From positions 2,790,001 through 2,854,000 of the forward strand of contig CP021220.1 of assembly GCA_003999685.1 (NCBI GenBank): 64,000 nt of DNA. Reading direction: 5' to 3'. How positions within the stretch are numbered: position 1 is the first letter of the stretch; the number at the start of each line of letters is the position of its first letter. The DNA is from Taiwanofungus camphoratus. Taxonomy: Eukaryota > Basidiomycota > Agaricomycetes > Polyporales > Taiwanofungaceae. Below, piece after piece: positions 8,201-51,613 of this stretch. A program made the position numbers and the translations under genes. Below the pieces are notes generated by a model. The model did no database searches. It was not told where the DNA came from and saw only the letters and a list, made by a program, of their open reading frames with translations.

Positions 8201-9174
8201 CGGCAATGTCCACTGCCTACCACCCCCAATTGGATGGGAGTACAGAACAGGTCAACCAGGAACTGGAGGCGGCCTGGAGAATCCTATGCGCAAATAACCC
8301 CCACACCTGGGTCAAACACATCCCCAAGTTCGAATTCGCACACAACCAGGTGCCGCATGCTGGAAGGAAGGAATTGCCATTCAAGCTCACCATGGGGTAC
8401 GACCCGAAGGCCATCGGATCTCCACGACCCTCTGACAAATACCCCACGCTCCAAGACCACCTGACCCAGATCTCTGAATCCCGCAAAGAGGCTCTTGCAG
8501 CACAAGAGCTAGCCCAGAAGCTGATGGAGGAACAAACCCCTTTTCCCTGGAAACCTTTCCAGGAAGGTGACAAGGTTTGGCTAGAAGCCACGAACCTCCA
8601 GCTAAGGACAATAAGTCGGAAATTTGACCCAAAGCGGCTTGGACCCTTCAAGATCACGGAAGCCAAGGGACCACTGACGTACAAGCTACAGCTTCCAAGA
8701 ACCTGGAAGATTCACCCGGTGTTCCATGCATCGCTGCTCACCCCATACAGAGAAACGGCGGAACACGGACCCAACTTTCTGAAATCACCACCTGATCTGG
8801 TTGAGGGGGAAGAAGAGTACGAAGTCGAGGCCCTCCGCGGGCATCGTGCCCGACGTGGGAAATGGGAGTTTCTCATCAAATGGAAGGGATGGCCGGTCTC
8901 TGCCAGCACCTGGCAGAAGGAAGACGATCTACGGCATTCCCCTGACCTGCTGAGGCGTTATAAGAAGGCAAACCACCTAGGCATCAACCCAGTTGGCAAC
9001 CGTTCAACTGCCCTGCAAAAAGCAATTCTGCAGCATCTCAAGGCCGCCTCCCACCATGTCCCATCGAACCAACGCGGCCCGAGCCCACCTTGCCGCCTCC
9101 ATCCTCACCGCAGGGAACGCCTGCACCCTGAATCCCTTTTTTCGGAGACTGCAGAACCTCCCCAACTTCGCTGA
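5207..9174 (+). pseudogene. Element B pol remnant (PR, RT, RNase H, IN, chromodomain)
   Basis: The order is typical of chromoviruses. An aspartic protease with a DSGAD site lies near 5330. The RT spans about 6050-6600 with a YMDD box near 6545, RNase H runs about 7044-7448, and a zinc-binding HHCC plus DDE integrase spans about 7753-8400. A GPY-type linker and a chromodomain with WKGW lie near 8810-8960. The region is interrupted by the 101-bp palindrome at 6844-6944 and is broken elsewhere (a few breaks), so it is a fossil. Confidence 0.9.
6844..6944. mobile_element. 101-bp palindromic mini-element made of LTR-C termini
   Basis: A perfect 5-bp target duplication GCTCA (6839-6843, 6945-6949) brackets a near-perfect hairpin. 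The 35-bp arms 6844-6878 and 6910-6944 are inverted copies with a single mismatch. The 31-base loop contains a second stem, CTACTA-GCGA-TAGTAG. The first 75 bases match the 3' terminal 75 bp of the C-family LTR (reverse orientation); the rest is an inverted copy of the outermost 26 bp. It has the ends TGATACAA and TTGTATCA and the target-site length of the A/C LTRs, so it was probably inserted by their integrase. Confidence 0.85.
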
Positions 9175-9855
9175 GGGGATTGTTGTCCCCCTACCTCGCC
9201 AAGCAACATCTGGCCTCGCCGCCGACTTTCTGACCCCCGCCGACTGTCTCGGATGGGTGCTGGCCAACGAACGACTACGCCCGGTGGTGGACACCGCCCT
9301 CGTTGTCTGGCCCAATCTTGCAGCCCAGGTTGCCATCTTTCGACATCAGGCCGAGGTTGTCTTACACCTCGATCAGGTAATAAGGGGGTACAGAGGGGAG
9401 AGGGAGAAGGGAGAGCATGACAAAGCTAAGTGGTGGGCCAGCCCCATCTGGAAAATTGGTATATCGTACTGGCAGGCCTGTAATGCGACGCGCTCCCATC
9501 TAAATTTCGTACCGACGTCGTCTCCACCCTCGAGCATCTCCTACCACCCTCCTCTGTCATCACACGCCCAGCCCCCTCCATGCAGGATGAGTGGACGGTT
9601 TGTCTCCACCCTGAGTGCCGCCCCCTGAACCGATGGGCTGGGGCCTGTGAATTCTGCATGGGCCTCGATCATGTTCCTGCTGACTGCATCCACTGGCCAC
9701 GATTGGGGGAGCCGGCTGTTGAGCCTTTCGTCCCGCCTCGCTGTCTGGATTGTTTTGCTGATGATCACGACACCGACCAATGCCCCAAGGCAGGGGCCGC
9801 CTGGTCGGAAATCAGTGGGTTGAAGCAGCCTGACGAGGAAGCTACCAGGTCATGA
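9056..9855 (+). pseudogene. Element B post-pol zinc-knuckle frame remnant
   Basis: Between the chromodomain and the 3' LTR lies a further protein-coding remnant in more than one frame. Its N-terminal part (from about 9056) has a GIVVPLPRQA segment loosely like the corresponding A-family protein. Its C-terminal part (9580-9855) carries two CX2CX4HX4C knuckles, CEFCMGLDHVPADC and CLDCFADDHDTDQC. The position and knuckles match the post-pol frames of elements A and C. Broken. Confidence 0.65.
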
Positions 9856-9896
9856 AGGTAGGTGTCGGGGCGACACCTGAGAGGAGATGGGGGTAG

Positions 9897-10973
9897 TGTT
9901 ACCATCAGGTAGGACCAGAGACTTGTTCATTTTTTCTTTCCCTTTGTTTGTCACACCATGGACGTGCGGCATCCCTTCCACACCTTACTTACCCAGATTG
10001 ACTGACAGGCCGACCGTCCCCGCTTACGCCATGGTAGTTATGTACTTTCGGGCCGCTGACTCCTCTTGCCTTATGTGGTCTCTGGGGGGGCTGCTAGTAT
10101 ACCTGGGGGTTGGCGGTGGCAGTATAAAGGAGGGTCCCACTGCTGGAGGTTCCCCTAGTCGTATTCTCTTCGTTCATCCTTTCCTAAAGTGTGTTACGGA
10201 GAGTCTACGCCCGTAGGTGACTACCGTGATGGGGAGTCGTTGAGTAGTCAGGCGTGAAGTGTAAATGAGGAGTCAGCCTGGCTGATGACGAGTACACGTC
10301 TAAGTCTTCAACCGCTAGCCCGATGGTCTCGAGAGAGTTGCAGGCTAAGTCACAGCCTAAGTCCTAGTGTAGTCACAAGGATATAGATGGTCTAAGGTGA
10401 CCCGTTGAATAGACGAAGGTATAGGGGCCTAAGCCCAGTCGTAAAGTACAAATGGTAACTACAGTACCAAAGTACACGATGTAACCAAGGAGGACAAGAT
10501 TGGGGTGCTCCGCAGTGAGCCAACCCCTTAAGTACTATGGTGGGTTTAGGGCAAGCCAGCCCTCACTCTCACGGGTACCAGCACCTAAGCATCCATAAGT
10601 CAGAGGCCCAAGTGGTCCCTTCTGAGGAACAGTCCATAACTAAGCGGGTGACGGTCAGCCCATCAGGAATAATGGTGATAATTGTAAGTGTACACGACCC
10701 GCTAGTCCGGTATAGTGAAGAGAAATGAAAATGTAAGTTCGCACCATTACCGCCTTGTAACAAAGTGTACTACGCATTAGTACCAATACACGCTTTTCTT
10801 TACACATCTTCTCACACCAGAAGAAGCCCGTAAAGACTATCACGACTACATAGGGCTTGTAGTTGAAGACTACCGAGGATCGTGACTTGTCATCACTGTC
10901 GCTCCTCTTCGACCCTTCGCTGCATACTGCTCCAAGCTTCTGCAGCATTACCAGGGTGAACCCCCTGGTAACA
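9897..10973 (+). repeat. Element B 3' LTR (contains an inserted LTR)
   Basis: Starts TGTTACCATC just after a polypurine tract (GAGGAGATGGGGGTAG) and ends GGTAACA. It is split by the E-type solo LTR at 10192-10762. Confidence 0.9.
10192..10762 (+). repeat. Solo LTR of a further family (E), nested in the B 3' LTR
   Basis: A 571-bp insertion with TGTTACGG and CTTGTAACA ends, flanked by a perfect 5-bp duplication AAGTG (10187-10191, 10763-10767). It has no coding content. Its TGTTAC/GTAACA termini resemble those of family B, but the interior is unrelated to the A, B or C LTRs. The orientation is arbitrary because no internal region is present. Confidence 0.8.
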
Positions 10974-11139
10974 GTTTATACTAAGCGGCAGAGGGTACGA
11001 GACGGCTGTGAAGTCCTTTTAGCTAGAGTTAGCTAAAGGGCGTAAGGCTTAGAGATTTGTTAGAGCAAGGTGGGCGAGGTTTGGCTAGCGTAGGAGACCT
11101 GTAGGAGAGGTCAGAGAGTTCGAGGGCGTAGGGAGATGT
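10974..11139 (+). repeat. R repeat copy 1, left part
   Basis: A 5'-truncated copy of the 1.6-kb non-coding R family. It continues at 19175 after the A1 insertion, and the bases GATGT at 11135-11139 are duplicated at 19175-19179. Confidence 0.85.
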
Positions 11140-11616
11140 TGATACAATTTCTATTTCTTGTCATTACCACGGTCATTGCTTACACATGGACTATTACTGT
11201 ATGGGCCCCGGATCGGCCCCGCTTACACATAGGACTCTGACTCATATCCGGGCCGCTTACCACATTCCTCATCACTCATACATATTGCTAATACGCCCGG
11301 ATCGTACCACTTTCTATTTACCTACAGTCGTACCACACTTCGGACCTCCTGCCCTAGAGTAGTTCTTGGTCCGTGCTCATGATTGGTACTTGTATATATA
11401 GCATGTACTTTAGCTTAGGTCGGACCTTAAGTCTGATCTTGTTACTATTATATTCGTGTCTTGTATCCTCTCGCTCACATCTGAGTGATACTCGCTCGAG
11501 TCCACGGACTTCACGACACTCGGTCTATATCGACCATAAGACCTCGCCACCTTCTATCGTGGTCAGGCCCTCACGTGTGAGGCAACGTATAGGATCCGAG
11601 ATACCAATTTGTATCA
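11140..11616 (+). repeat. Element A1 5' LTR
   Basis: Runs from TGATACAATTTC to CCAATTTGTATCA, giving 8-bp inverted termini TGATACAA/TTGTATCA. TATATATA lies at 11393-11400, and the self-primer tract TAAGTCTGATCTT lies 35 bp downstream at 11428-11440. Confidence 0.95.
11393..11440 (+). promoter_or_regulatory. LTR-A core promoter and presumed transcript start
   Basis: The TATATATA box at 11393-11400 is followed after a typical 30-35 bp spacing by the 13-base tract that is complementary to the primer site at 11618-11630. Transcription is inferred to begin at or just before this tract, so that the RNA 5' end can fold back as primer. Confidence 0.65.
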
Positions 11617-11617
11617 A

Positions 11618-11630
11618 AAGATCAGACTTA
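11618..11630 (+). promoter_or_regulatory. Element A1 primer-binding site, self-priming type
   Basis: AAGATCAGACTTA, one base after the LTR, is the exact reverse complement of 11428-11440 within the LTR (13 of 13). Element C has different bases at both positions, and its pairing is kept. Confidence 0.8.
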
Positions 11631-11763
11631 CAACGAGTCGCCCCTAGTACCATCTAGTGGGCATACATCCATTACCACGTCTTACCTCAGGACCGTTGAT
11701 CCTGACTATTGGGGGTTACCTACACGAGGAGAGGAACCACTTCTCTACGACATCGAACAACGA

Positions 11764-13095
11764 GTGTTCGTAGACACGAACCGGAACCCAATCTATCCGA
11801 GTTCACCGCTTACCTGGGTCAGAACAACATCCAGACGACCAATCCAACAAGCACAGGCCAACCTCGCTACTTACTTCCAGCGAAACCCTGTCGACGAAGG
11901 AAAAGACATCGCCATCTTATTCACGGGAGGATCGCAGGAAGCCACACCTATCGAACCCATCCCTGAAGGCTCGTTCACCGCCTCCACTTCCCGAACCCCG
12001 ACTCCCACTCCATCCTCTTCAACACCCGCTCCTATAATATCCGCACCCACACCTCGACGAGTCACAATGGCGACGATTGGGAACATGACCCAACAGCAGC
12101 TGGAGGCACTCATCGCTCGCCTCCAGACCCAACAACAAGGGGCTCGAGCCCTCAAACTCGACATCCCTGCACCGGATCCATTCACCGGGCAAGGGGAAGA
12201 CTTGGACCGATTTGTCCAACGGGTGGAGCACTACTTCACTGCCACAAACAACACCAACCTCAGCGATGATGCAAAAATCGCATTTGCGGTCGCCCTCATG
12301 AAGGGAGGGCAAGACGCGCGCATATGGCGCGACACGTTCTACGAACGAGCGGCAGGGGGCCAGGCGCCCTACAGGACATGGGACATATTCAAGGCATCCC
12401 TCAAGTTGGCATTTCCAGAACACGAGGGAGTGCAGCGAGCACACCAGGTGCTCATGGAGTTGCCAGCCAAGCAGCTTAACAAGAAAACGAGGGCCACTAC
12501 CAAAATGTATGTGGAAAGGTTCCGACTTCTGGCCGAAAAGGCGAAGTTAAAGGACGCAACTATCGATGCGAACGGAAACCGCACCGAGAACGACTACCCT
12601 ACCCTTAGGGCGATATTTATCAAGGGGCTAGACCTCCAGATCTACGCCACATTAGCCGGAAGGGCCATATCCGAAAGGCCGGACACCATGGAAAAATGGT
12701 ACCGAGATGTTCTATCCTTGGACGCAATCTACAGGGGGATCGACCAGATCTCCAACATCACCACCTCAGTCGACTATGGGGAACCCATGGACGTAGATGC
12801 AGTCGTCATGCGACCGACACGCACCTCTTCATCCACCTCCAACAAAAAGCAATGGACGGATGGTTGCTCCTTGAATGAAAGTGAGAGGAAATACCATCGC
12901 GATAATAACCTATGCTTCTACTGCCATAACTGGGGACATTCGGCACGAGATTGTCGCAAAAAGGTGGCAGCAAGGACGAAGAACACGTCCAAGGCGCAAG
13001 ACACGCGTCCCACGGATTACCGCTCCTACATCAAAAGCCTATCGGCCGATGAGAAAAGAGAAGTCATGGAGGAATTGGCTACGGAGGATTTTTAA
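11764..13095 (+). CDS. Element A1 Gag
   Basis: About 440 residues that closely match the Gag parts of A2 and C. A proline/threonine-rich stretch comes first, then the retrotransposon Gag core (segments such as DIPAPDPFTGQGEDLDRF and MKGGQDARIWRDTFYE), and last one CX2CX4HX4C zinc knuckle near residue 385. It packages the element RNA in virus-like particles. The frame is open from 11764; the exact translation start is uncertain because I see no obvious upstream ATG in this frame. Confidence 0.85.
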   Translation: MFVDTNRNPIYPSSPLTWVRTTSRRPIQQAQANLATYFQRNPVDEGKDIAILFTGGSQEATPIEPIPEGSFTASTSRTPTPTPSSSTPAPIISAPTPRRVTMATIGNMTQQQLEALIARLQTQQQGARALKLDIPAPDPFTGQGEDLDRFVQRVEHYFTATNNTNLSDDAKIAFAVALMKGGQDARIWRDTFYERAAGGQAPYRTWDIFKASLKLAFPEHEGVQRAHQVLMELPAKQLNKKTRATTKMYVERFRLLAEKAKLKDATIDANGNRTENDYPTLRAIFIKGLDLQIYATLAGRAISERPDTMEKWYRDVLSLDAIYRGIDQISNITTSVDYGEPMDVDAVVMRPTRTSSSTSNKKQWTDGCSLNESERKYHRDNNLCFYCHNWGHSARDCRKKVAARTKNTSKAQDTRPTDYRSYIKSLSADEKREVMEELATEDF

Positions 13096-13196
13096 AGGGG
13101 CAGGGTGAGTCGACGCAACCGCTGCCCATTTCAGTTTCACTGTCCCGCGTTGTACTAGTAGTTCGGAATGAAAGAGCCCTACACATTCCGATTACT

Positions 13197-16100
13197 GTGG
13201 GACGAAAAGATGTCGAAGCGCAGGCCTTCATCGATAGTGGCGCCTCTGGGATATTCGTACACCCCAGATTTGTGAAAGAACACAACATCCGTACCGAGGC
13301 TTTACCCCGTCCACTGCCCGTTTTCAATGTGGATGGAACAGCTAACAAGCAGGCCATCATCACAAAAAGAGCCCTCCTTTCATACAAAGTAGGAGGAGAA
13401 CCCCGATTCGTTAAAGCCTATGTGGCCAGCATAGGGAACGAAGATATTATCTTCGGACATACCTGGCTCAAGTTGGAAAATCCAGACATCGACTGGAAGA
13501 TGGGGCGAGTGGAGCTCAAACACCGTATGACCCTGGAAGAATCAAGGGAATGGAAGAAAAACCTACTGGAAACCAGGGCCAAACGACTGGAAATCAAGAG
13601 GTTAACAGCAAACTCCCTCTCCAGAGAAATCATTAAAGCTCGTCAACCCTCAGTCGAAGAAATAGAGGATGAAGGGGACGGGGAAGTCGTGGACACTATG
13701 TCCCCAGTCCTACCAACGATAGAAACCCCTCGTCAAACGATGCACCGAGACTCACTAGTCTCAACCCCGGAAGAAAACTCGGTGAATGGAATCACACTTG
13801 AACAGGCCATGGAAACGATCGACGACGATGAATTGGTCATAGCGTTCATCGAAGGAGATGACCGAATCACAACGTATGGACGGGATTCACACCCGGCGTA
13901 TCGAGACACCCCGCTTACGGAAAAGGAATACCCTCTCGACGGAATGTATCGTCACCTCGAAAATGGTCTTATCTGGCAGGTTAAGCACGACATTGGTCGA
14001 CTCACCACGTCTACGGAACTCGCTATAAAGGAACATGCCAAGAATGAGGAGAAACCGGTCACGGAACTCGTCCCAAAGTACCTTCACTATCTTCTCCCGG
14101 TGTTCGACAAAAACAAAGCAGCGAGACTCCCCCAACATTCGGAATTCGACCATGAGATAAATCTTAAGCCAGATTTTAAGGACTTCAAACAGACGACGTA
14201 TTCTCTCAACCGAGAAAAGCGAGCGGAACTGGACAAGTTCCTCGAAGAGAATATAAAGAAAGGGTATATACGACCGTCCAAATCCCCACTTGCAAGCCCG
14301 TTCTTCTTCGTGGAAAAGAAGGACGGCGGATACCGACCTTGCCAGGACTACAGGGAACTCAATGAAGGAACGATCAAAGACAGGTATCCTCTTCCCCTCA
14401 TAACGGAGCTTCTGGAACACCTCAATAACGCCACGATCTTCACGAAAATGGACCTTCGTCAAGGGTACAACAACCTTCGCATCAAGGAGGGTGACAAATG
14501 GAAGGCGGCTTTTGGCGTTCCCGCAGCTGGGGAAGGACCTCCCTCTTTCTATGAACCCCTGGTAATGTTCTTCAGAATGGGCAACTCACCGGCAACGTTC
14601 CAACGGATGATGAACACGGTCTTTGCCGATATGCTCAAGGAAGGTTGGTTGGCAATCTACATGGACGACATCCTCATCTATTCGACGGATCCCGAGGAGC
14701 ATAAGAAGTGAACACGGCGAGTTATCGAAAGACTCCGAGACAACGACCTGTACCTCAAACTGGAGAAATGCAAATTCGACGTGCAAGAAGTCGAATTCCT
14801 AGGCATGATCATCAGACCCGGACAACTCGCCATGGACCCAGTCAAAGTAGCTGGTATCAAGGATTGGCCAATATCTAAGAACCTCAGGGAGGTTAGGTCA
14901 TTCATCGGGTTTGGGAATTTCTATCGCCGGTTCATACACGGTTTCTCGCATCTGGCTCAGCCGTTGATCTCGCTTACACGAAAGGACGTCAAATGGCATT
15001 GGGACAACGAACAGCAGGAAGCTTTCGAAGCATTAAAGAAAGCTCTTCTGGAACAACCGGTTTTGCAGATGCCCAACCCGGACAAACCATTCGCGTTGGA
15101 AACGGATGCATCGAAATACGCCACGGGGGCAGTCCTCAGGCAAAAGGACGACAATGGCGACTGGCACCCATGCGGTTATATTTCCCAGAGTATGACACCA
15201 GCGGAGCGAAACTACGACGTCTACGACCAAGAACTCATGGCCGTCATAAGAGGACTCAATGAATGGAGTCACCTTCTCATCGGAAGCTCGTATCCAGTCA
15301 CGATTTATAGCGACCACAAGAATCTGACATACTGGAAGACGGCACGAAATCTAAATCAGAGACAGGCACGATGGGCTCTTCGCCTATCCGAATTCGATTA
15401 CAAATTAATTCACGTCCCCGGCACGCAAATGGTACAAAGCGACGCACTCTCCCGATGCCCCGACCACGACGACGGTTCATCAGACAATCAGGGCGTAACG
15501 GTCCTATCTGACAAAGTATGGGCAGCAGCAATCGACATAGGGCTCAAGAATTCCATTGCAAATGCATGCGTAAATGACTTGGTATACACAGAAGGAATAC
15601 GCAACGCACAAAACGGCCCAAACGATCACTGGATAATTCAAGACGGGAACCTCCTTTATGATAATCGGGTATATATTCCCCTCGACGAGGACCTCCGACG
15701 ACAAATAGTCTCGAATTACCACGACCTCCCACACGCCGGTCATCCTGGAATTACCAAAACCCTAAGCTCCCTACGAAGGGACTATTGGTGGCCTGGAATG
15801 GCCGACTTCGTCGCACGATATGTCCACGGCTGCGGTACTTGTCAACAAATGAAGGTCAACACTCACCCGGACCGTCCCGCCCTCGTCCCTATCCGAGCCG
15901 CCGCTCACGCAACACCGTTTAGCACCTTCAGCTGCGACTTCATCACCGATTTACCCCTCTCCAACGGCTACGATGCTATATTGGTCGTAGTGGACCACGA
16001 CCTTAGTAAGGGGGTAATTTTCATTCCATGCAACAAAACTATTGATGCGCAAGGAATGGCGGAGCTCCTTTACAACGAGGTCTACAAATGGTTCGGGCTC

Positions 16101-16975
16101 CCAGACAAGGTGATCAGCGATCGCGGACCACAATTTGCATCGAAAGTATTCCAAGAGCTATGCCACATGACAGGGGTACAATCAGCCATGAGTACGGCTT
16201 TCCACCCTCAGATGGACGGAGAAACGGAACGGGTTAATCAGGAGCTCGAAGTGTACCTTCAATGCTTCACAAGCAACAATCCGGATAAATGGTCCTCCCT
16301 ACTCTGCGTAGCACAATTCGCCCACAACTCCAGGAACATTCGACGATCAAGGCGTCGCCGTTCAAAGTCATGATGGGCTTCGAACCGTGGGGAATCCCCA
16401 TAATACACAAAGGATCGGACACACCTGGCACGGCTTATCGTCTGAAGAACCTCCAAAAGATAAGAGAACAGGCACACACGGCAATGGAACTAGCCCAGGC
16501 AGTACTGGCAAAACGGATCAAACCACGAGGAAAAGGTTTTCGCAAAGGACAACAGGTTTGGCTCGACTCTCGGAACTTAAAACTGCCGTACCCTTCCAGG
16601 AAGCTAGCACCCAAGAGAGAGGGACCTTTCGAAATCATTGAAGTCCTAGGCCCGGTATCATACAAACTAAAACTCCCGAACACATGGCGGGTACATCCCG
16701 TTTTCCACACTACCCTTCTATCACCATATACAGAAACAGAGATCCATGGCCAGAACTACACTAGGCCACCACCGGAACAAATCGAAGGCGAAGATAACTA
16801 CGAAGTCGAAGCCATCATCGGACATCGGGAGAATTTACGGAAAAACCGCCGCGAGTATAGGGTCAGGTGTAAAGGATATTCTTCGGCAGATGACTCATGG
16901 GAACCGGAAGCAAATTTAGCCAGTACTGCGGAGGAGCTCCTGGGAGCATATAAGGAGAGGAAGAAATTGAGCTAA
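13197..16975 (+). pseudogene. Element A1 pol remnant (PR, RT, RNase H, IN, chromodomain)
   Basis: In order: protease with DSGASG near 13235, RT with YMDD near 14665, RNase H near 15100-15450, and integrase. The integrase has its zinc-binding region near 15740-15850 and its DDE core at about 15940-16250. A GPY linker and a chromodomain with a YRVRCKGYSSADDSW segment lie near 16790-16930. It is very close in sequence to A2 and C. About two breaks interrupt it, so it is a fossil. Confidence 0.9.
15999..16018 (+). promoter_or_regulatory. Polypurine-tract copy inside integrase (candidate central PPT)
   Basis: GACCTTAGTAAGGGGGTAAT within the integrase codons differs from the 3' polypurine tract at 18678-18698 by one inserted A only. 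In A2 the corresponding two sites (50185-50204 and 47562-47581, minus strand) are identical over 20 bases. The match extends well beyond the purine run, so chance is unlikely. A second plus-strand start, as in lentiviruses and Ty1, is a possible role. Confidence 0.5.
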
Positions 16976-17018
16976 ATCCAGTTCACTCCCTTCAGACGAA
17001 CTACCACCTACTCGCAAC

Positions 17019-18428
17019 ATGCCTCGCCAGTCTAACACCACCGCCCAAGCTGCTGCTCGAGGCCGAACCCGCGCCTTCCTTGCCACTCGATGTGCTACTC
17101 GCACACCCCAGACGGCCACCTCTCCTACGGCAGGACAATCCTCGTCATCAACATCTTCGACATCCACTGGTAACGGCCCACTCTTTGGGTTTCAGACTGC
17201 CGCACATTTTCGCAACCCCGTACCAGGAGAAGGCGCTTTACCCCGACAAGCCGACGTCATCTATTACCCGCGTTGCGTCTACGACGTGGACCCAATCCTC
17301 CTCGACATCCTGGTTCGACACTCGAGAGACATCGCACGACTACTTGGGTCTCTACCGAATACACGAAACAACCAGGATGAACAAGAGGCGTTCGGAGAAT
17401 ACATCAACGCTAGGCTACAATACTTAGGAGCGGTAGACGACACAACCGAACAACTGGCCATATGGAAGAACAAGATCCGGCAGTTAGACTTCAAAGTGGT
17501 CCGCACCCTACGAAGGATGGATGACATGTCCATGGCCCGACACCTCCAAGACATGATCGCCCCACACCGACAAACCAGCCACGGCAGATTTGTACGGCGA
17601 TCCCAACCCGACATTGTCACACACGGCCCCACCCCACCTCCCGAACCTGAAGACCCCTTGCAAACTTTCATCGACACCCTGGCCGGACAGGAGTCTATTG
17701 GAGCCGTACCCAGTAGAATCGACTCTCTTCCAAATTACATGCGCCCCGGACCCAACTGGAGACCTCGAGGGCGTTGCCACGCCTGTGGTAGCATGATGCA
17801 CTGGGTACGTGACTGCCCAGACTACACCTGTGCCAGGTGCCATCGCACTGCCCCGGGACATCTATCCCGGGAATGTACAGTAGCACGCCACACTTCTGCC
17901 CCACCCATCCTACCTGCCCTGGGAGAGGATCGTCGTCATGAGATAGTTGATTCAATCCACCGCCCCACACAGGCCCCCATCCCAGTCATGTCGGCCACCA
18001 ATCCTCCACGCGTTCTGACGTCCAGAAGAGAGCGACCCCTCCCCCCTACCCCATCCCGCATTAGAGCAAACGAGGCATCAACCACTCATACCAATGCAAC
18101 GGCCGGTCCATCCCGAATCGATACGCCTCACCCATACCAACACGTACCCAGGCCACCTCTCAACTATTTGTCCGGACCGGGTATACCACCCAACCAACAC
18201 CTTGCAGAACCTGGGGCAAGTACTGGCCCCTTCACTCGTGGCCCTGACGGCCAATTCACTCCTCCCCCAGTCATCCCGCCTCCCCCGTCCAGTTATCACC
18301 TCCCCCCTGTCATTTCTCCACCACCTGCTTACCACCGTGGGACTTACGACCCGCCCTCAAACTCCTATATGAATGACGACGAATGGGACGACTATGGGTT
18401 CGAGGACTACGGTGATGGTGAACAGTAG
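17019..18428 (+). CDS. Element A1 post-pol protein with zinc knuckles
   Basis: A single open frame of 469 residues between the chromodomain and the 3' LTR, beginning MPRQSNTTAQ. Residues about 45-180 form a helical-looking region. Two knuckles lie near residues 250-290: CHACGSMMHWVRDC (CX2CX4HX4C) and CARCHRTAPGHLSREC (CX2CX6HX4C). The last 150 residues are very proline-rich with an acidic C-terminus. A2 has the homologue, C has a shorter one with the same two knuckles, and B has a remnant. No standard gag, pol or env product matches. An RNA-binding or second Gag-like role is inferred from the knuckles alone. Confidence 0.8.
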   Translation: MPRQSNTTAQAAARGRTRAFLATRCATRTPQTATSPTAGQSSSSTSSTSTGNGPLFGFQTAAHFRNPVPGEGALPRQADVIYYPRCVYDVDPILLDILVRHSRDIARLLGSLPNTRNNQDEQEAFGEYINARLQYLGAVDDTTEQLAIWKNKIRQLDFKVVRTLRRMDDMSMARHLQDMIAPHRQTSHGRFVRRSQPDIVTHGPTPPPEPEDPLQTFIDTLAGQESIGAVPSRIDSLPNYMRPGPNWRPRGRCHACGSMMHWVRDCPDYTCARCHRTAPGHLSRECTVARHTSAPPILPALGEDRRHEIVDSIHRPTQAPIPVMSATNPPRVLTSRRERPLPPTPSRIRANEASTTHTNATAGPSRIDTPHPYQHVPRPPLNYLSGPGIPPNQHLAEPGASTGPFTRGPDGQFTPPPVIPPPPSSYHLPPVISPPPAYHRGTYDPPSNSYMNDDEWDDYGFEDYGDGEQ

Positions 18429-18556
18429 GGGTGCTGTTTGCTTGAGGCGGTAGGTTGCAAGCGGTGCTGGGTCCTTACCCGGCCGCCCACATGCCTACAT
18501 TGCACGAGGCTTACACGATGTCGTGGGTCCTTACCCGGTCATTGTTAGTCTCACCA

Positions 18557-18627
18557 GGTATGAGATGAAACACTCTCAAGGTACGAGGTGAAACACCCTC
18601 ATGGTATGCAGTGAAACACCCGCACGG
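18557..18627 (+). repeat. A1 3' UTR tandem repeat, 3 units of about 23-24 bp
   Basis: Three units of the form GGTAYGAGRTGAAACACYCTCA lie just upstream of the 3' polypurine tract. A2 has four units at the same place (47636-47735), so the copy number varies between copies of the family. Confidence 0.8.
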
Positions 18628-18677
18628 CTGAAGAACATTTTATTTAACGGAAAATCAAATAGGGTCGTTCGGAGATC

Positions 18678-18697
18678 GACCTTAAGTAAGGGGGTAA
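18678..18697 (+). promoter_or_regulatory. A1 3' polypurine tract
   Basis: An AAGTAAGGGGGTAA purine-rich run immediately before the 3' LTR start (TGATAC at 18698). It is the expected primer site for plus-strand synthesis. Confidence 0.85.
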
Positions 18698-19174
18698 TGA
18701 TACAATTTCTATTTCTTGTCATTACCACGGTCATTGCTTACACATGGACTATTACTGTACGGGTCCCGGATTGGCCCCGCTTACACATAGGACTCTGACT
18801 CATATCCGGGCCGCTTACCACATTCCTCATCACTCATACGTATTGCTAATACGCCCGGATTGTACCACTTTCTATTTACCTACAGTCGTACCACACTTCG
18901 GACCTCCTGCCCTAGAGTAGTTCTTGGTCCGTACTCATGATTGGTACTTGTATATATAGCATGTACTTTAGCTTAGGTCGGACCTTAAGTCTGATCTTGT
19001 TACTATTATATTCGTGTCTTGTATCCTCTCGCTCACATCTGAGTGATACTCGCTCGAGTCCACGTCCTTCACGACACTCGGTCTATATCGACCATAAGAC
19101 CTCGCCACCTTCTATCGTGGTCAGGCCCTCACGTGTGAGGCAACGTATAGGATCTGAGATACCAATTTGTATCA
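18698..19174 (+). repeat. Element A1 3' LTR
   Basis: 477 bp, with the same ends and length as the 5' LTR and about nine differences. It is followed by the target duplication GATGT at 19175-19179. Confidence 0.95.
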
Positions 19175-25935: not shown

Positions 25936-25936
25936 T

Positions 25937-38493: not shown

Positions 38494-38760
38494 ATGTCAG
38501 TGGGACTTGCTATAGCACACAGCAAAAAGCTCGCAAGGGATCTGTCGTCCTGCCAGAATGATAGCCGCGTCGACGTGCGACTAGGTATGTTGATCCATCG
38601 AGATTTCCGCGTAGATATGAAGACGATAAAGTCCGACCATCCCCGTCTACCAGGCTGTCCTGCTCTGAGTTTCAACCGCTTCTCTGGTAGCTACCACCAA
38701 CAGCTGTCATTTTCCCACGCTCGGAAAAAAGCAGAAAAAAGGTGCTGCACACATAGAAAC

Positions 38761-40923
38761 ATGCCAAAAGACGAGGCCATTGGCCAACAAGGTCACAGAC
38801 CTAACCCGTACCCCAAAAAGGGGAACGAGAGTGTAAATAGTGTAATAGAAAAAGGGAGAGCGAGAAAGGAAGCTGATAACACAGTGACCACACCGAGCAC
38901 CCCGAAAAAACAGACAATAACCAAAAGACTGAGAGAGCGACTAACGAAAACACCCACAAAACATAGACAGGAAGGAACCATGGAAGGAATAATGCTAACA
39001 CGAGAGGAGGTGAACAAGTCCACGCCATCAAACCTCGAAAGAGACAATAGAAGTGTAGTATCATATGACGACCCACCTGACGCTGAGTTCAACACAGATA
39101 TATTCAATACTAATAGTGAAATAGATCATGAGATGGAGACGATAACAGATAACGATAAGAAGAAAACAAGAAAGGATATGATGAGAGATCTAGAAGAGGC
39201 GATAAAGGGGGTAACAGAGATACTGAGCCAAATGTCAAATCACGCTGAGTTCACCACAACTATCCTAGAGGGCGCAAAGATCATCACTCAGAGACTCACA
39301 CTAGGCACCGACAAACGCAACCAGACTGGAATCCAAAATGGACAAACCCATGGAGAGAACAAAACAACAAAGAACGCTAAAGACCAAGGAACGGACCACC
39401 TTGCACAGATAGCAACATCGCTTGCGAAGCTCACAACACGAATGGACCAGATAGAATCACAACTGGCATACTCAACGAGGGCAACCAACCAAGGGGACTC
39501 AACAAGCAGGAAAAGAGGAGAGGATAGGGATGAGGCAAGAGTAACAGAGATAAGCACATCAACAAGACCACCCCAGACAAAGACCATACCGTCAACCGTA
39601 ACTAACGTCCGAGCAGTCAGTAGACCAATAGTCCCAAAGGCGCGCAACCCAGCAACAGACATGAAAAAAGGCAAAACCCTACCGACTAACCCACTAGCAG
39701 CACACCACCCCTCCCACCTCATTGTAGAAATTCAGGATGGCGCACCCGAGGGAAAACGACCCAAAGAAGCGCAGACGGTCCAAGACATTAATGAACAACT
39801 GCAGAAGTACGAAGACAGTAAACACATACGGGTTGTAAACGTAAAGTACAACCCACAAAACAACTGCATTGTGTTTGTACAGGCTGACCAACAGGCAACC
39901 GAGCTGATCCCATTCGCTAATAGATTTACGGAACTAATAGCAGGAGACCGGGCGACGCGAGTCCGGGCAGATAGACCATGGTACAAGATACAGGTTAATG
40001 GCGTGAGTACATGGAACGAAAACACCAGTAACATACCAACACCAGAGGAAATCCACCAAGAACTCAAGGACAACAACCCAGACTATGCAAAAATGGAAAT
40101 CCTACAGCTCCCAAGATGGATGCGACACCCATCAGACCTAAAACAACTTTTCTATTCCTCAGTAGTCATTGCCCTGGCAAACCAAAAGGACGCAGAACAC
40201 CTGGTAAAGAGAATCAAAAATCTAGCCATAGCAGGCCGATTTGCAGAGGTAAAGAGATATGCAGACCGACCACCGGTACTCCAATGCAACAATTGCTGGT
40301 CCTTCGACCACTCAGGGGGAAGATGCAAAAACAAAACCATATGCAGGCTATGCGCAGGTGAGCATGCAGAGGCTGACCACGTTTGCCAGGAATGCACGGA
40401 AGAGCAGGGTGAAGACCCGATGGACCTAGACAAATGCAAACACGACTATACCTGCGCAGCGTGCAAAGGACCACACACGGCGAACTTCAGGAACTGCCCA
40501 GTCTGCTCACACAAGGTAGGCATGCCAAAGACGCAACCAACCAGACCACCCATGAACAATGGAATGACCACAGGAGCATGGAACATGGTTACTCGCAACC
40601 GACAACAACATGAGCAAAAGGAGAAGGAGAGCGAAAAGGCAACAGGAAGAGAAACAACAAGGTACAGACGCAACAGTAAGACCACTACTGATGCACGAAT
40701 GACACAGAACCGATTCCAAGAACTTGAAGACGAGATCCAAGCCAACGCACTACACTCACTTGACCTGAGATTCCCGGAGATCGACATGGCAAGGAAGATG
40801 AGTGCAATGGACGAGGCAGATGGGGAATTTGCAAAAGCAGTAGCAACGTTGGAGGCGGTCCGACAAACAGAAGCACCACGAACCCAACAATCGATGATCA
40901 CTGACGAGGAGACAATATGTTAG
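38761..40923 (+). CDS. LINE ORF1 protein (RNA-binding, Gag-like)
   Basis: 720 residues from the ATG at 38761; the frame is open upstream to 38494. The N-terminal half is highly charged and polar, with a probable coiled-coil region around 39140-39460. The C-terminal half has three zinc knuckles near 40283-40500: CNNCWSFDHSGGRC (CX2CX4HX4C), then CRLCAGEHAEADHVC and CAACKGPHTANFRNC (both CX2CX3HX6C). This triple pattern is characteristic of ORF1p of Tad1/Jockey-type LINEs, which coats the element RNA. The frame looks intact. The stop TAG (40921-40923) overlaps the ORF2 start. Confidence 0.85.
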   Translation: MPKDEAIGQQGHRPNPYPKKGNESVNSVIEKGRARKEADNTVTTPSTPKKQTITKRLRERLTKTPTKHRQEGTMEGIMLTREEVNKSTPSNLERDNRSVVSYDDPPDAEFNTDIFNTNSEIDHEMETITDNDKKKTRKDMMRDLEEAIKGVTEILSQMSNHAEFTTTILEGAKIITQRLTLGTDKRNQTGIQNGQTHGENKTTKNAKDQGTDHLAQIATSLAKLTTRMDQIESQLAYSTRATNQGDSTSRKRGEDRDEARVTEISTSTRPPQTKTIPSTVTNVRAVSRPIVPKARNPATDMKKGKTLPTNPLAAHHPSHLIVEIQDGAPEGKRPKEAQTVQDINEQLQKYEDSKHIRVVNVKYNPQNNCIVFVQADQQATELIPFANRFTELIAGDRATRVRADRPWYKIQVNGVSTWNENTSNIPTPEEIHQELKDNNPDYAKMEILQLPRWMRHPSDLKQLFYSSVVIALANQKDAEHLVKRIKNLAIAGRFAEVKRYADRPPVLQCNNCWSFDHSGGRCKNKTICRLCAGEHAEADHVCQECTEEQGEDPMDLDKCKHDYTCAACKGPHTANFRNCPVCSHKVGMPKTQPTRPPMNNGMTTGAWNMVTRNRQQHEQKEKESEKATGRETTRYRRNSKTTTDARMTQNRFQELEDEIQANALHSLDLRFPEIDMARKMSAMDEADGEFAKAVATLEAVRQTEAPRTQQSMITDEETIC

Positions 40924-44556: not shown

Positions 44557-45089
44557 AAGGTGGGGGGGTTCGTAGTTCGTCATCTTGCCCGTTCCGTATC
44601 TGTCGCACCAACGTGCTGTATTCTCTCTCGTTGCGCGTCCCTTTGCTAGGGACCTTTTCCAATATGTGTACAGTAGTCTGAATAAAGCGGACGCAAACGT
44701 CGTCCTTGTGAAAAGGTTCCTAAGTGCATGGAGTAACCAAACAACACAGCGAAGAATTAGAAGACTTAGGGGGATAAAATGCGCTCATTTAGGCTCAGTA
44801 AATCATCATGGCCTTGAAGGGCATAAGGCCCCTCGCGCAATCTTCGCTCCGCTCAGTGTTTTAGGAGCCTTTAGAACGATATCGCGACTTCGTGAGTTGA
44901 ATCACTATAGTAAAAAGTAGGAGATGTTGTAAGTAAAAATTCGTAGACATTCGGAACTTCGTAGCTGTCAAAACTGAGTGGGGGCTTGTTGGGGAAAGTA
45001 AAACATGACCAAACGATATGCGAAAAGTAAAATGGACGTAGCGTAATCTCAGCTAAAGTCGGGGTATCGTCAATTGCTCCTCTGATTCT
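44557..45089. other. 3' flank of element D, unassigned
   Basis: No gene is supported. On the minus strand this is downstream of the D pol stop, so it should hold the D 3' untranslated region and perhaps LTR sequence. With no second LTR in the window I cannot define it. The open frame at 44585-44920 shows no motif. Confidence 0.4.
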
Positions 45090-47086: not shown

Positions 47087-47562
47087 TGATACAAATTGGT
47101 ATCTCGGATCCTAGATATTGCCTCACATGTGAGGGCCTGACCACGATAGAAGGTGGCGAGGTCTTATGGTCGATATAGACCGAGTGTCGTGAAGTCCGTA
47201 GACTCGAGCGAGTATCACTTAGATGCGAGCGAGAGGATACAAGACACGAATATAATGGTAACCAGATCAGACTTAAGGTCTGAGCTAAACTAAGTACATG
47301 CTATATATACAAATACGTATCCTGAGCACGGACCAAGAACTACTCTAGGGCAGGAGGTCCAAAGTGTGGTACGACTATAGATAAATGCAAAGTGGTACGA
47401 TCCGGGCGTATTAGCAATACGTATGAGTGATGAGGAATGTGGTAAGCGGCCCGGATATGAGTCAGAGTCCTATGCGTAAGCGGGGCCGATTCCGGGGCCC
47501 GTATAGTAATAGTCCGTGAGTAATCAATGACGTGGTAATGATAAGAAATAGAAATTGTTTCA
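47087..47562 (-). repeat. Element A2 3' LTR
   Basis: 476 bp, adjacent to the target duplication on the left and to the polypurine tract on the right (47562-47581, minus strand). Confidence 0.95.
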
Positions 47563-47635
47563 TTACCCCCTTACTAAGGTCGATCTCTGAACGACCCTAC
47601 TTTATTTTCCGTTAAATAAAATGTTCATCAGCCAT

Positions 47636-47735
47636 GCGGGTGTTTCACCGCGTACCATGAGGGTGTTTCACCTCGAACCGTGAGGGTGTTTCACCTCGTA
47701 CCGTGAGAGTGTTTCATCTCATACCTTGTAGGCAT
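47636..47735 (-). repeat. A2 3' UTR tandem repeat, 4 units
   Basis: Four units of about 24 bp containing GTGTTTCACCTCGTACC, the reverse complement of the A1 array, which has three units. Confidence 0.8.
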
Positions 47736-47960
47736 GTGGGCGGCCGGGTAAGGACCCAGCACCGCTTGCAACCTACCGCCTCAAGCAAACAGCACCCCTA
47801 CTGTTCACCATCACCGTACAGTGTAACTCCACTGTACCCTGCTAGCATGTGGCTCAGCGTTAATACTTCTCGCTGAGTTGCAACTAGCCGCCTCCGGCAA
47901 GCATTCATTGCTCGCCATCACCGTACAGTTCGAACTCGTAGTCGTCCCACTCGTTGTCGT

Positions 47961-49183
47961 TCATGTAGGAGTTCGAGGGCGGGTGGTAATTCCCGCGGCG
48001 ATAAACAGGTGGTGGAGAAACGACAGGGGGGACGTGATAACTTGACGGGGGAGGTGGGACGACCCGGGTTCTGCAAGGTGTTGGTTGGGCGGTATGCCCG
48101 GTCCGGACAAATGGTTGAGTGATGGCCCGGGTGGGTGCATGTGAGGGTAGGGCGTGTCAGTCCACGATGGACCGGCTGTTGCGTTGGAGTGAGGGGCGGG
48201 TGGCCCATTGCTTCTGGAGCGAGACGGGGTAGGGGGGAGGGGTTGTTCCCTTCTGGACATAAGGACACGTGGAGGGTTGGTGGCGGACATGACAGGGATG
48301 GGTGCTTGTGTGGGACGGTGGATCGAGTCGACTAACTCGCGGCAACGACCTTCTCCGGGGGCGGGCAGGATGGGCGGGGCAGAGGCATGACGTGCTACCG
48401 TGCACTCTCTGGATAGATGTCCCGGAGCCGTGCGATGGCATCTAGCACAGGTGTAGTCTGGGCAGTCACGTACCCAATGCATCATGCTGCCGCAGGCGTG
48501 GCAGCGTCCTCGAGGTCTCCAGTTGGGCCCGGGGCGCATGTAATTCGGGAGGGAGTCGATCCTGCTGGGTACGGCTCCGATGGACTGCTGTCCAGCCGGG
48601 GTGTCGATAAACGCTTGTAGGGGGTCCTCCAGTTCAGGCGGCGGGGTAGGTCCTGGAAATGGCGAGCCATGGACATGTCGTCCATCCTTAGTAAGGTGCG
48701 GACCACCTTGAAATCCAACTGCCGGATTTTGTCCTTCCATATAGCCAGCTGCTCGGTCGCGTCATCCACCGCTCCTAAGTATTGTAGTCTGGCGTCGATG
48801 TATTCCCCGTACGCTTCTTGCTCGTCCTGGTTGTTCCGCGTATTCGGCATGGAACAAAGCAGCCATGCGATGTCCCTCGAGTGTCGAGTCAGGACGTCGA
48901 GAAGGATCGGGTCCACATCGTAGATCCAACGAGGGTAGTATAAGATGTCGGCTTGTCGAGGTAGAGCGCCTTCTCCCGGTACGGGGTTGCGGAACTGGGC
49001 GGCGGTTTGAAGTCCAAAGAGTGGGCCATAGCCAGAGGATGCCGAGGACGCCGATGACGAGGATGGTACTGCCGTAGGAGATGTGGTTGTCTGAGGTGTG
49101 CGGGTGGCACGTCGACTGGCGAGAAAGGCGCGGGCTCGGCCACGAGCGGCAGCTTGGGCAGCGGTGTTGGACTGGCGAGGCAT
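47961..49183 (-). pseudogene. Element A2 post-pol zinc-knuckle frame
   Basis: The homologue of the 469-residue A1 protein, starting MPRQSNTAAQ at 49183, with the same knuckle pair CHACGSMMHWVRDC and CARCHRTAPGHLSREC (around 48405-48500) and a proline-rich tail. It occupies two overlapping frames, so about one break. Most of the sequence is conserved, which argues that the protein matters to the family. Confidence 0.75.
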
Positions 49184-49226
49184 GTAGCTATCGGGTGGTA
49201 GTTCGTCTGAGGGGAGTGAACTGTTC

Positions 49227-50482
49227 CTAGCCCAAGTTCTTCCTCTCCTTATATGCTCCTAGGAGTTCCTCCGCAGTACCGGCTAAGTTTGCTTCCGGTT
49301 CCCATGAGTCATCTGCCGAGGAATACCCTTTCCACCTGACCCTGTACTCGCGGCGCCTTGTCCGTCGGTTCTCCCGGTGTCCAATGATGGCTTCGACTTC
49401 GTAGTTATCTTCGCCTTCGATAAGTTCCGGGGGTGGCCTCGTGTAGTTCCGGCCGTGGATCTCGGTCTCTGTATATGGCGATAGAAGGGCGGCGTGGAAA
49501 ACTGGATGTACCCGCCATGTTTCCGGAAGCTTTAGCTTGTACGAGACCGGGCCTAGGACTTCAACGACTTCGAAGGGTCCCTCTCTCTTGGGTGCCAACT
49601 TCCTGGAAGGGTATGGCAGCTTTAAGTTCCGAGAGTCGAGCCAAACCTGCTGTCCTTTACGAAAACCTTTCCCTCGTGGTTTGATCCGCCTTGTCAATAC
49701 CGCCTGGGCTAGCTCCATTGCCGCGTGTGCTTGGTCTCTTATCTTCTGGAGGTTCTTTAGGCGATAAGCAGCACCGGGTGTGTCCGATCCCTTGTGTACG
49801 ACGGGGATTCCTCGTGGTTCGAAGCCCATCATGACTTTAAATGGTGACGCCTTGATCGTCGAATGTTCTCTGGAGTTGTGAGCAAATTGTGCTGCGCCGA
49901 GTAAAGAAGACCACCTATCCGGATTGTTGCTTGTGAAACATCGAAGGTATACTTCGAGTTCTTGATTGACCCGTTCCGTTTCTCCGTCCGTCTGAGGGTG
50001 GAAAGCCGTGCTCATGGCGGACTGCACTCCTGTCATGCGGCAAAGCTCTTGGAACACCTTAGATGCGAATTGCGGTCCGCGATCGCTGATTATCTTGTCT
50101 GGGAGTCCAAACCATTTGTAGACCTCGTTGTAGAGAAGCTCCGCCATTCCTTGCGCGTCGATGGTTTTGTTGCATGGAATGAAAATTACCCCCTTACTAA
50201 GGTCGTGGTCCACTACGACCAAAATTGAATCGTAGCCGTTGGAAAGGGGTAGATCCGTGATGAAATCGCAACAGAACATGCTGAACGGTGTCACATGAGC
50301 GGCGGCTCGGATAGGGATGAGGGCGGGTCGGTCCGGGTGGGTATTAATCTTCATTTGTTGACAAGTCCCGCAGCCATGGACATATCGGGCGACGAAGTCA
50401 GCCATTCCGGGCCACCAGTAGTCTCGTCGAAGAGATGAGAGGGTCTTTTGAATTCCAGGGTGGCCGGCTGAAGGGAGGTCGT
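49227..50482 (-). CDS. Element A2 pol, integrase and chromodomain part
   Basis: The continuation of the pol interrupted by element C. It carries the integrase zinc region (HPGIQKTLSSLRRDYWWPG), the DDE core, the GPY linker and a chromodomain ending with YRVRWKGYSSADDSWEPE. It is an open frame throughout. A polypurine-tract copy lies at 50185-50204. Confidence 0.85.
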
Positions 50483-51036
50483 TGATACAAGCTGGTATCA
50501 ACGACCGGAAAGCCTCGAACGTGAGGACCTGGCTACTAGAGATAGTAGTGAGGCTTTATGGACACTGCGTATGTCCTCCTGGGCGAAGTCGATAGAGTCG
50601 AGTGAGTACTCAGGTACGAAGCGAGAGGTCGCAAGATACGAGTATAAGATTGCTAGTGGTAACTAGCTACTTGGTAACCAGATCGAACTTAAGGTCCGAC
50701 CTACAAAGTACAGGGCCTTATATACGTATTCTACTCTGCGCACGGACCATGGCACGTGGTCTAAGAATCAGCATGAGTAAGCGTAGGTAAGGCACTATGA
50801 GTCATCGGGCCGTATTAGCAATCAGTAAGCGTAAGACGGAATGTGTAACCGGGGCCCGATATGAGTCAGAGTCCATGAGTAACCGGGGCCCGTCCGGGGC
50901 CCGTACCGTAAGCAGCAATGAGTCATGATGCTGCGCGAAGAAGCTGGGCCTACCTGAGGCCCATCCTAGAAGCGAAAGGTCACGGGACCGATCCGAGGTC
51001 CGACCGATAAGATATGCGATGAAAGAAATTGTATCA
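50483..51036 (-). repeat. Element C 3' LTR
   Basis: 554 bp with TGATACAA/TTGTATCA termini. Its terminal 75 bp folds as AAAGCCTC...GAGGCTTT with an inner CTACTA...TAGTAG stem, the structure reused in the 101-bp palindrome at 6844. Confidence 0.95.
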
Positions 51037-51316
51037 TTACCCCCCTACTTATGATTGAACGCCTGGTCAATCAACGAAACTCCAATGGGGACGCGTCGAG
51101 TCTCTCCGAGTCGAACTTTTGTGTTGGCGACCGTCGACGAACTTGACGAACTTCCGAGGATGAACTTGAAAAACTTGCCTGGAAGCGACGAGCGGGTGTT
51201 TCACCGCGACCGATAAGGGATGACCCTTGAACCCATAGGGGATGACCCCTCCAACCGTGAGCATCCTTCCAGCTCGAACTTTACAGTTTTACGACATGTC
51301 GGTCGTACGTTGTAGT

Positions 51317-51613
51317 TTAACGACGTGCACGGTCGTTCCCTCGCAGTTTAACGACATGCAGGAACCACTCTGGATGATATGGCGGTACCGGGTCGTAGGC
51401 GAATGCGTAATTGACGGCGGTGCATTCGCGTGTAAGGTGCCCAGGCGACGGGCGACTACAGCAGAGACATTTGTAGTCAGGGCACGTCCTGTGCGAGTGA
51501 CGAGTGCTACCGCAGAGGTAGCAAGGACCGTAGCGAGTGAACGAGGATGAAAGACCGTTTGACTGAGACATGCGGATGATGAGTGGGGTGAAAATGCGAC
51601 TGATTCCACTCAT
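51317..51613 (-). CDS. Element C post-pol zinc-knuckle protein
   Basis: 98 residues in an open frame that overlaps the end of gag-pol by four bases (ATGA type overlap). It contains CYLCGSTRHSHRTC (CX2CX4HX4C) and CLCCSRPSPGHLTREC (CX2CX6HX4C), the same pair and order as in family A, without the long N-terminal and proline-rich parts. It looks intact. Translation by coupled stop/restart is plausible from the overlap. Confidence 0.7.
   Translation of the reverse strand: MSGISRIFTPLIIRMSQSNGLSSSFTRYGPCYLCGSTRHSHRTCPDYKCLCCSRPSPGHLTRECTAVNYAFAYDPVPPYHPEWFLHVVKLRGNDRARR

What the first reader, a model, noticed from the sequence alone, without database searches (positions are those of the whole stretch)
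9056..51613. A post-pol zinc-knuckle gene shared by chromovirus families A, B and C
Between the chromodomain and the 3' LTR, A1 (17019-18428) has an open 469-residue frame, A2 (47961-49183) its homologue, C (51317-51613) a 98-residue version and B (9056-9855) a remnant. All carry two closely spaced knuckles. In A and C they are CX2CX4HX4C then CX2CX6HX4C; in B both are CX2CX4HX4C. Normal chromoviruses end at the chromodomain, and the usual extra gene at this place would be env, which has no such motif. The C version overlaps the gag-pol stop, suggesting coupled translation. Role unknown: RNA chaperone, second nucleocapsid or antisilencing factor are guesses.
Basis: partly seen in the sequence, partly recalled or inferred. 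Interest (0 to 1): 0.8.

Follow-up and report, generated by a model that had tools for sequence, protein, structure and literature searches.

The report
Extra zinc-knuckle gene in mushroom retrotransposons
Several families of jumping elements in a medicinal mushroom carry, after their usual genes, one more gene for a small protein that probably grips RNA or DNA; it is kept nearly as strictly as the element's integrase, so the element seems to need it, though nobody yet knows exactly for what.

Summary
The window is from Taiwanofungus camphoratus W1. A1's 469-codon post-pol frame is one of 37 full-length genomic copies of at least 82% identity, 23 without a stop. The C version has 78 matches, 64 without a stop. 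The B "remnant" is a damaged copy of a 268-residue gene, without a stop in 29 of 51 full-length matches. A fourth family, D, has a 251-residue homologue of B's protein. Of 150 scored Tf2-1-type integrase ends, 148 have a post-pol match within 2.5 kb downstream. Median dN/dS is 0.11 in A (its pol end 0.09) and 0.17 in C (pol 0.10), against 1.2-2.2 for the gene in wrong frames; the knuckles score 0.03-0.09 and are complete in 60 of 60 A and C copies. Corrections: A-C and B-D are homologous pairs, but A/C-B/D homology is not shown; C's stop-overlapping ATG is in frame with the conserved start in 13 of 28 copies. Best reading: a separately translated nucleocapsid-like accessory protein acting on element RNA. 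Function and expression are inferred.

The parts
17019..18428 (+). A1 post-pol gene, 469 aa: basic N-terminus, a middle region of about 60-245 (helical in a very low-confidence model), double knuckle, Pro-rich acidic tail
17775..17876 (+). A1 knuckle pair, residues 253-266 (CX2CX4HX4C) and 271-286 (CX2CX6HX4C)
   Evidence: Pfam zf-CCHC over the first knuckle; pair complete in 30 of 30 A copies; median dN/dS 0.028 in alignment columns 251-300, which hold it
11140..11616 (+). A1 5' LTR (477 bp, TGATACAA...TTGTATCA); 5-bp target duplication GATGT around the element, by eye
18698..19174 (+). A1 3' LTR
11618..11630 (+). A1 self-priming site, 13 nt complementary to its own LTR
11764..13095 (+). A1 gag frame; carries its own single CX2CX4HX4C knuckle (CFYCHNWGHSARDC)
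   Evidence: DUF4939 match below its cut-off
13197..16975 (+). A1 pol (protease, RT, RNase H, integrase, chromodomain), split into three frames in this copy
47961..49183 (-). A2 post-pol gene, frameshifted copy
51317..51571 (-). C post-pol gene from the second ATG, 84 aa
51422..51523 (-). C knuckle pair
   Evidence: pair complete in 30 of 30 C copies; median dN/dS 0.086
51610..56928 (-). C gag-pol, one open frame of 1772 aa in this copy, ending in a chromodomain; own single Gag knuckle
56991..57533 (-). C 5' LTR; followed by a 12-nt self-priming match
50483..51036 (-). C 3' LTR; the C element is nested inside A2 with target duplication ACGAC
   Evidence: read by eye
9056..9855 (+). B post-pol gene, broken copy of a 268-aa gene; two CX2CX4HX4C knuckles; its ATG lies 118 nt inside the pol frame
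7753..9174 (+). B integrase and chromodomain frame
3123..3133 (+). B self-priming site (11 nt)

Best explanation
These self-priming chromovirus families carry a third gene after pol whose protein is translated on its own, not fused to Gag-Pol. Its core is one or two CCHC zinc knuckles. The most likely role is a stand-alone nucleocapsid-like protein: it binds the element's own RNA or cDNA and helps with packaging, refolding or annealing, for example the intramolecular pairing of the 5' end with the primer site that self-priming requires. The N-terminal domain (A, B, D) would add protein-protein contacts; family C has reduced the gene to little more than the knuckle pair. Shown: the gene, its position, its copy number, purifying selection and the self-priming complementarity. 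Inferred: translation of the protein, RNA binding, and the step of the life cycle. Existence as a selected element gene: about 0.97. This particular role: about 0.5.
For: Selection comparable to that on pol (median dN/dS 0.111 v 0.094 in A; 0.168 v 0.104 in C), wrong frames of the gene 1.2-2.2. B1-B2 0.18 and D1-D2 0.11, wrong frames 0.84-2.19 (dS is near or beyond saturation in both). The knuckles are the most constrained part (0.028 in A, 0.086 in C) and complete in 30 of 30 A, 30 of 30 C and 11 of 11 open B copies examined. Family C, with 78 matches and 64 without a stop, keeps little more than the knuckle pair. The 84-aa C protein is net +6 and the A knuckle segment +5. A post-pol match follows 148 of 150 scored integrase ends and 50 of 52 D-type ones. 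All four families show 11-13-nt self-priming complementarity, with compensating differences between A and C. The stop-to-start distance varies in frame (A mod 3 = 15/10/4 over 29 of 30 copies), which argues for independent initiation.
Against: Gag of A, B and C already has its own CCHC knuckle (by eye), so a second nucleocapsid is not obviously needed. D keeps only one knuckle, and the C-terminal parts of B and D are acidic. The A tail is acidic too. No expression or binding data: AlphaFold models were unusable (mean pLDDT 37.5 and 37.2), and the A1 protein has no PDB relative by sequence (B and D were not searched). Zinc knuckles also bind proteins and serve in other RNA steps.
Confidence: 0.5

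Rival explanations
1. A CERV/Rev-like regulator made from a short messenger: it binds full-length element RNA in the nucleus and brings it to the cytoplasm or controls splicing.
For: CERV of Cer1 is a separate gene of a C. [quoted passage not shown] In B and D the start lies inside pol by 118 and 524 nt, which favours a separate messenger over re-initiation. Basic N-termini, +4 to +6. In A a CAGTTCA lies just after the pol stop in 28 of 30 copies, which could hold a splice acceptor.
Against: The CERV passages read suggest a C4-type finger, not CCHC. The better acceptor-like site in A (pyrimidines then CAG in the last 45 nt before the start) is kept in only 19 of 30 copies. Element RNA without an intron would need no special export.
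Confidence: 0.2
2. An anti-silencing or host-defence-blocking factor carried by the element.
For: Retained in four families; the post-pol protein diverges much faster than pol (B v D: pol about 70% and post-pol about 26% identity), as expected of proteins in an arms race.
Against: The most constrained part is the nucleic-acid-binding knuckle pair. No positive selection was seen in A: the nine windows over columns 1-450 of 479 have median dN/dS of 0.31 or less, although single pairs in the tail reach 0.68 at the 95th percentile. C has lost the N-terminal part and has the most matches.
Confidence: 0.12
3. A second structural Gag: the N-terminal region is a diverged capsid domain and the knuckles its nucleocapsid.
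For: Gag-like order: N-terminal region, knuckles, Pro-rich tail (helices, at very low confidence).
Against: Profile comparison with Gag of A1, A2 and C aligns the knuckles only. C lacks the N-terminal region altogether.
Confidence: 0.12
4. Envelope-like gene.
For: Position after pol. Two of 11 B copies (the B2 subfamily) have a 19-residue stretch of mean hydropathy 1.76 and 1.94.
Against: No such segment in A (30 copies, highest 1.33), D (10 rows, 1.37) or C (one copy, 0.55). Zinc knuckles are retained.
Confidence: 0.02
5. Passenger open frame without function.
For: Many copies are decayed, as expected for dead insertions of any element.
Against: Median dN/dS 0.1-0.2 in four families; presence after 148 of 150 scored integrase ends.
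Confidence: 0.02

Closest known systems
Tf1/sushi-type self-priming chromoviruses (Ty3/Gypsy, Metaviridae)
   Same: Gag-PR-RT-RH-IN-chromodomain order, Tf2-1-type SH3 (PF24626), self-priming complementarity
   Different: An extra gene follows the chromodomain; Tf1 and Tf2 have none (recalled)
'add. ORF' of LTR elements in Novikova et al. 2010, PMC2864245
   Same: An additional open reading frame of unknown function is marked in the Figure 3 legend of that survey, which included Postia placenta (a polypore, recalled)
   Different: Only section 5 and passages were read and the figure is not held. The text read gives no knuckle, selection or family-wide retention for it
Cer1 CERV (PMC10309623, passages read)
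   Same: Separate accessory gene of an LTR retrotransposon with a possible zinc finger
   Different: C. elegans; spliced; C4-type loop and other structured domains; no sequence comparison was made here
Additional ORFs of plant and rotifer LTR elements (PMC7264820, PMC5408684, PMC11963269)
   Same: Extra gene in an LTR element
   Different: PMC7264820 has no occurrence of zinc, fungi or chromovir in its main text; the other two were seen in search listings only

Membership tests
Chromovirus (Ty3/Gypsy) | PR-RT-RNase H-integrase order with C-terminal chromodomain | tested here: met
   Pfam RVT_1, RT_RNaseH, Integrase_H2C2, rve and Chromo in C and D as one frame; the same in pieces in A1; RVT_1, rve, H2C2 and Chromo in B; protease matches lie below the Pfam cut-offs except one in D
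Chromovirus (Ty3/Gypsy) | LTR-flanked element with short target duplication | tested here: met
   A1 GATGT, C ACGAC (by eye); D LTRs identical over 571 bp, flanks share CTCGT
Tf1-like self-priming group | Primer site complementary to the 5' part of the element's own RNA | tested here: met
   13, 12, 11 and 11 nt in A, C, B and D, one copy each; random frequency of 11 nt or more 0.0008 for 20 nt against 480 nt, while 30 nt and LTRs of 305-571 nt were searched; use as primer not shown
Tf1-like self-priming group | Phylogenetic placement of RT with Tf1 | not tested
   no reference RT set at hand
Retroviral nucleocapsid (function) | CCHC knuckle(s) with zinc ligands conserved | tested here: met
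   zinc binding itself not tested
Retroviral nucleocapsid (family) | Part of Gag, homologous to the element's NC | tested here: not met
   separate frame after pol; profile match to Gag over the knuckle only
Retroviral nucleocapsid (function) | Binds and anneals element RNA | not testable with these tools
   needs protein
Envelope protein | Membrane-spanning segment and signal peptide | tested here: inconclusive
   hydropathy only: none in A, C, D; 2 of 11 B copies above 1.6; signal peptide not tested
CERV of Cer1 | Sequence or fold homology | not tested
   CERV sequence not fetched

The most novel reading that the evidence does not exclude
A whole radiation of fungal chromoviruses depends on a dedicated, separately translated nucleic-acid-binding protein encoded after pol: a free nucleocapsid working beside the Gag-embedded one, in family C pared down to an 84-residue double zinc knuckle. 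It would be a general accessory gene class of basidiomycete LTR elements, perhaps linked to self-priming.
Probability: 0.35. Interest if true: 0.75.

Novelty: new variant of a known kind. Interest (0 to 1): 0.58.

Why it matters
Ty3/Gypsy elements are commonly taken to need only gag and pol. A third gene under near-pol constraint in four families means that the replication cycle of these fungal elements includes a step not covered by the Ty3/Tf1 model. The minimal C protein (84 residues) makes that step testable with purified protein and native transcripts.

Tried and rejected
Sequence relatives elsewhere: a search with the A1 protein returned nothing (the 7,991 candidates sharing most words were scored). 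B returned three proteins and the B+D alignment four: all named ones are from Taiwanofungus, and the one unnamed, from short contigs, closely resembles this genome's L085. Two scans of viral contigs found nothing. The spread outside this species is therefore unknown; the absence is weak because words are limited, only top candidates were scored, and how many fungal proteins the database holds is not known.

Common origin of A/C with B/D: profile comparisons align knuckles only. N-terminal regions give a score of 14.8 against 13.4 +/- 2.6 (maximum 20.8) for 60 column-shuffled controls. Not shown. B and D fall from about 70% pol identity to about 26% in the post-pol protein, so at 47-58% pol identity between the pairs homology could well be undetectable.

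Structure: two AlphaFold jobs, mean pLDDT 37.5 and 37.2; no fold search was made on them.

Frameshift fusion to pol: not favoured for A and C because the frame of the start relative to the pol stop is not conserved. For B and D the start lies in the +1 frame inside pol (window B and L071) and fusion was not excluded.

Internal promoter: a TATAAG or TATAAA lies upstream of the start in 60 of 60 A and C copies and in the one B and one D copy looked at. It is also the codon pair of a conserved Tyr-Lys, and other Tyr sites are nearly as fixed, so this is not significant.

Literature: ten searches listed no paper that I could recognise as describing a knuckle gene after pol in fungal chromoviruses. 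Only open-licence papers are held, most hits were seen as listings, and supplements could not be opened.

Invalid steps of mine: one search read loci without turning the minus-strand ones (replaced). The pol figures are void because A1's pol changes frame (replaced). In one search the second ATG of C was taken as the last ATG within 80 nt, so 5 of 30 distances (46-61 nt) may be to a later ATG.
Full report
What the locus is. The window lies in a 33.2-Mb genome of 15 contigs. A protein of the B2 subfamily is encoded letter for letter in locus L086 on contig C9. It is recorded for Taiwanofungus camphoratus (AcW1) on a contig of 1,741,554 bases, which is the length of C9 here. The published genome paper reports a burst of Gypsy elements, with 1,157-1,259 Gypsy LTR copies per genome (PMC8865532, passages read), and in the passages shown describes no extra gene.

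Anatomy. A1 is an LTR element (11140-19174) with a gag frame, a damaged pol ending in a chromodomain and then the 469-codon frame 17019-18428. A2 is a second A element on the minus strand, split by a nested C element (50483-57533). C has a single open gag-pol frame of 1,772 codons in this copy and a short frame after it. B (about 2.1-11 kb, plus strand) has integrase and chromodomain at 7753-9174 and a broken frame after it. Gag in A, B and C carries its own single CCHC knuckle (by eye). A fourth family, D, was found outside the window: L071 has 571-bp identical LTRs, a gag-pol frame ending in a chromodomain, and a 251-aa frame that overlaps the end of the pol frame by 524 nt and has one knuckle. 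Pol identity between single copies is 88% for A-C, about 70% for B-D and 47-58% between the pairs, by piece.

The gene is real. Full-length matches in the genome without a stop: A 23 of 37 at 82% identity or more; B 29 of 51 covering all 268 residues; C 64 of 78 rows taken as C-type, partial ones included; D 29 of 41 at 89% or more covering all 251 residues. I counted these by hand from the lists, twice, and the tool says that such counts are lower bounds. A match without a stop may still lack a start. Of 276 candidate SH3_Tf2-1 integrase ends, 150 were scored, and 148 of these 150 have an A, B or C post-pol match within 2.5 kb downstream on the same strand (48, 47 and 53), against 0.008 per site expected by chance; one of the two exceptions lies about 2 kb from a contig end. 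In the other direction, 51 of 58 A, 48 of 70 B and 53 of 78 C rows have one of those 150 integrase ends upstream; the others were not checked further. For D, I took 52 of the 150 rows: 51 D-like and one divergent; the other 98 are B, A or C types. The D gene lies downstream of 50 of the 52; the exceptions are one D-like row and the divergent one.

Selection. Pairwise dN/dS (NG86) over 30 A copies has median 0.111 (5-95%: 0.08-0.15); the same gene read in the other two frames gives 1.56 and 2.22, and in one antisense frame 1.29. The last 201 pol codons of the same copies give 0.094. Among nine windows over columns 1-450 of 479 the lowest is the one that holds the knuckle pair, 0.028, and the highest the last, 0.31. 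For 30 C copies the gene from the second ATG gives 0.168, the knuckles 0.086, the tail 0.298, pol 0.104, wrong frames 1.47 and 1.22. B: 0.106 within eight open copies and 0.183 between B1 and three B2 copies, wrong frames 1.50 and 1.92. D: 0.135 within nine copies and 0.112 between D1 and two D2 rows (dS 2.7, saturated), wrong frames 0.84 and 2.19. Two of ten fetched B copies were left out because their frame is interrupted. The 30 A and 30 C copies are the best-scoring of the lists, which favours intact ones. NG86 ignores transition bias, which lowers the ratio, but the frame controls share that bias and are not low.

Knuckles. The double knuckle is complete in 30 of 30 A copies, 12 of which have stops elsewhere, in 30 of 30 C copies and in 11 of 11 B copies used; D has one knuckle in 9 of 10 rows, the tenth (L083) ending at that point.

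Relationship of the versions. A and C share the start (MPRQSN / MSQSN, by eye) and the knuckle pair at 40-53% identity. C lacks A's region between them. B and D are homologous over 155 columns (hhalign probability 97%, E 6e-11), with conserved positions such as W66, L68, L73, T79, W84, P85 and L87 of D in the five sequences aligned (P85 is kept in all five). A/C against B/D: knuckles only, which prove nothing.

How it may be expressed. In A the start lies 44-47 nt after the pol stop in 28 of 29 measurable copies, in all three relative frames; in C 39-43 nt in 25 of 30, also in varying frames. So a fixed frameshift or the ATGA overlap is unlikely. In B and D the start is inside pol (one copy of each looked at), which re-initiation after the pol stop cannot easily serve. 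A separate messenger is therefore the simplest common scheme; no RNA data bear on it here.

What it most likely does. The protein's constant part is a nucleic-acid-binding-type knuckle module; C shows that this module plus a short tail is enough. All four families have 11-13 nt just after the 5' LTR that are complementary to a site inside the LTR; in A, B and C that site follows a TATA-like box (by eye), and A and C differ on both sides in a compensating way. This is the hallmark of Tf1-type self-priming (recalled). A chaperone that refolds or anneals element RNA fits both facts, but export, packaging or regulation fit nearly as well. A precedent for an accessory gene of an LTR retrotransposon acting on genomic RNA is CERV of Cer1 (PMC10309623: abstract opening, passages).

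Novelty. Extra genes in LTR elements are a known kind, and an additional ORF of unknown function is marked in a 2010 survey of fungal chromoviruses (PMC2864245; passages, section 5 whole).

Noticed in passing
window 6845-6948: A 104-bp near-palindrome in B's RT region that resembles two inverted C-type LTR ends, flanked by GCTCA on both sides (by eye); perhaps an aberrant integration of joined LTR ends. Among 40 of 205 candidates scored, only this place matches over the full length; the other places match 75 bases or fewer.
   Followed up: partly
A post-pol gene, 30 copies (L001-L030): Linkage disequilibrium decays with distance (mean r2 0.15 under 10 bp, 0.05 beyond 100 bp, 0.034 if independent), and pol and post-pol distances barely correlate (rho 0.19-0.21): A copies may recombine extensively, as if two RNAs are co-packaged. 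Recurrent mutation and a star-like tree were not modelled.
   Followed up: partly
A copies, LTR against post-pol: LTRs differ less (median p 0.07, 14 of 30 copies measurable) than third codon positions of the post-pol gene (0.29), also by transversions alone (0.018 v 0.066), so the non-coding ends look younger or more constrained than synonymous sites.
   Followed up: no
genome-wide: Premature stops in decayed copies are mostly TGA, as would be expected from C-to-T change at CGA codons (CpG methylation decay or a RIP-like process); not tested.
   Followed up: no
window 2339-2815: A-type LTR in inverse orientation inside B's 5' LTR, apparently solo.
   Followed up: no
window 10198-10752: About 555 bp beginning TGTTACGG and ending TTGTAACA, flanked by AAGTG, inside B's 3' LTR (by eye): probably a solo LTR of another family.
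   Followed up: no
window 38494-40923: An 809-codon open frame without a Pfam match at E 0.1.
   Followed up: no
L071:6840-7363: In D the post-pol gene and the C-terminal tail of pol overlap by 524 nt in two open frames, so one of the two is overprinted.
   Followed up: no
A post-pol upstream region: CAGTTCA just after the pol stop is kept in 28 of 30 A copies although the surrounding spacer varies.
   Followed up: no
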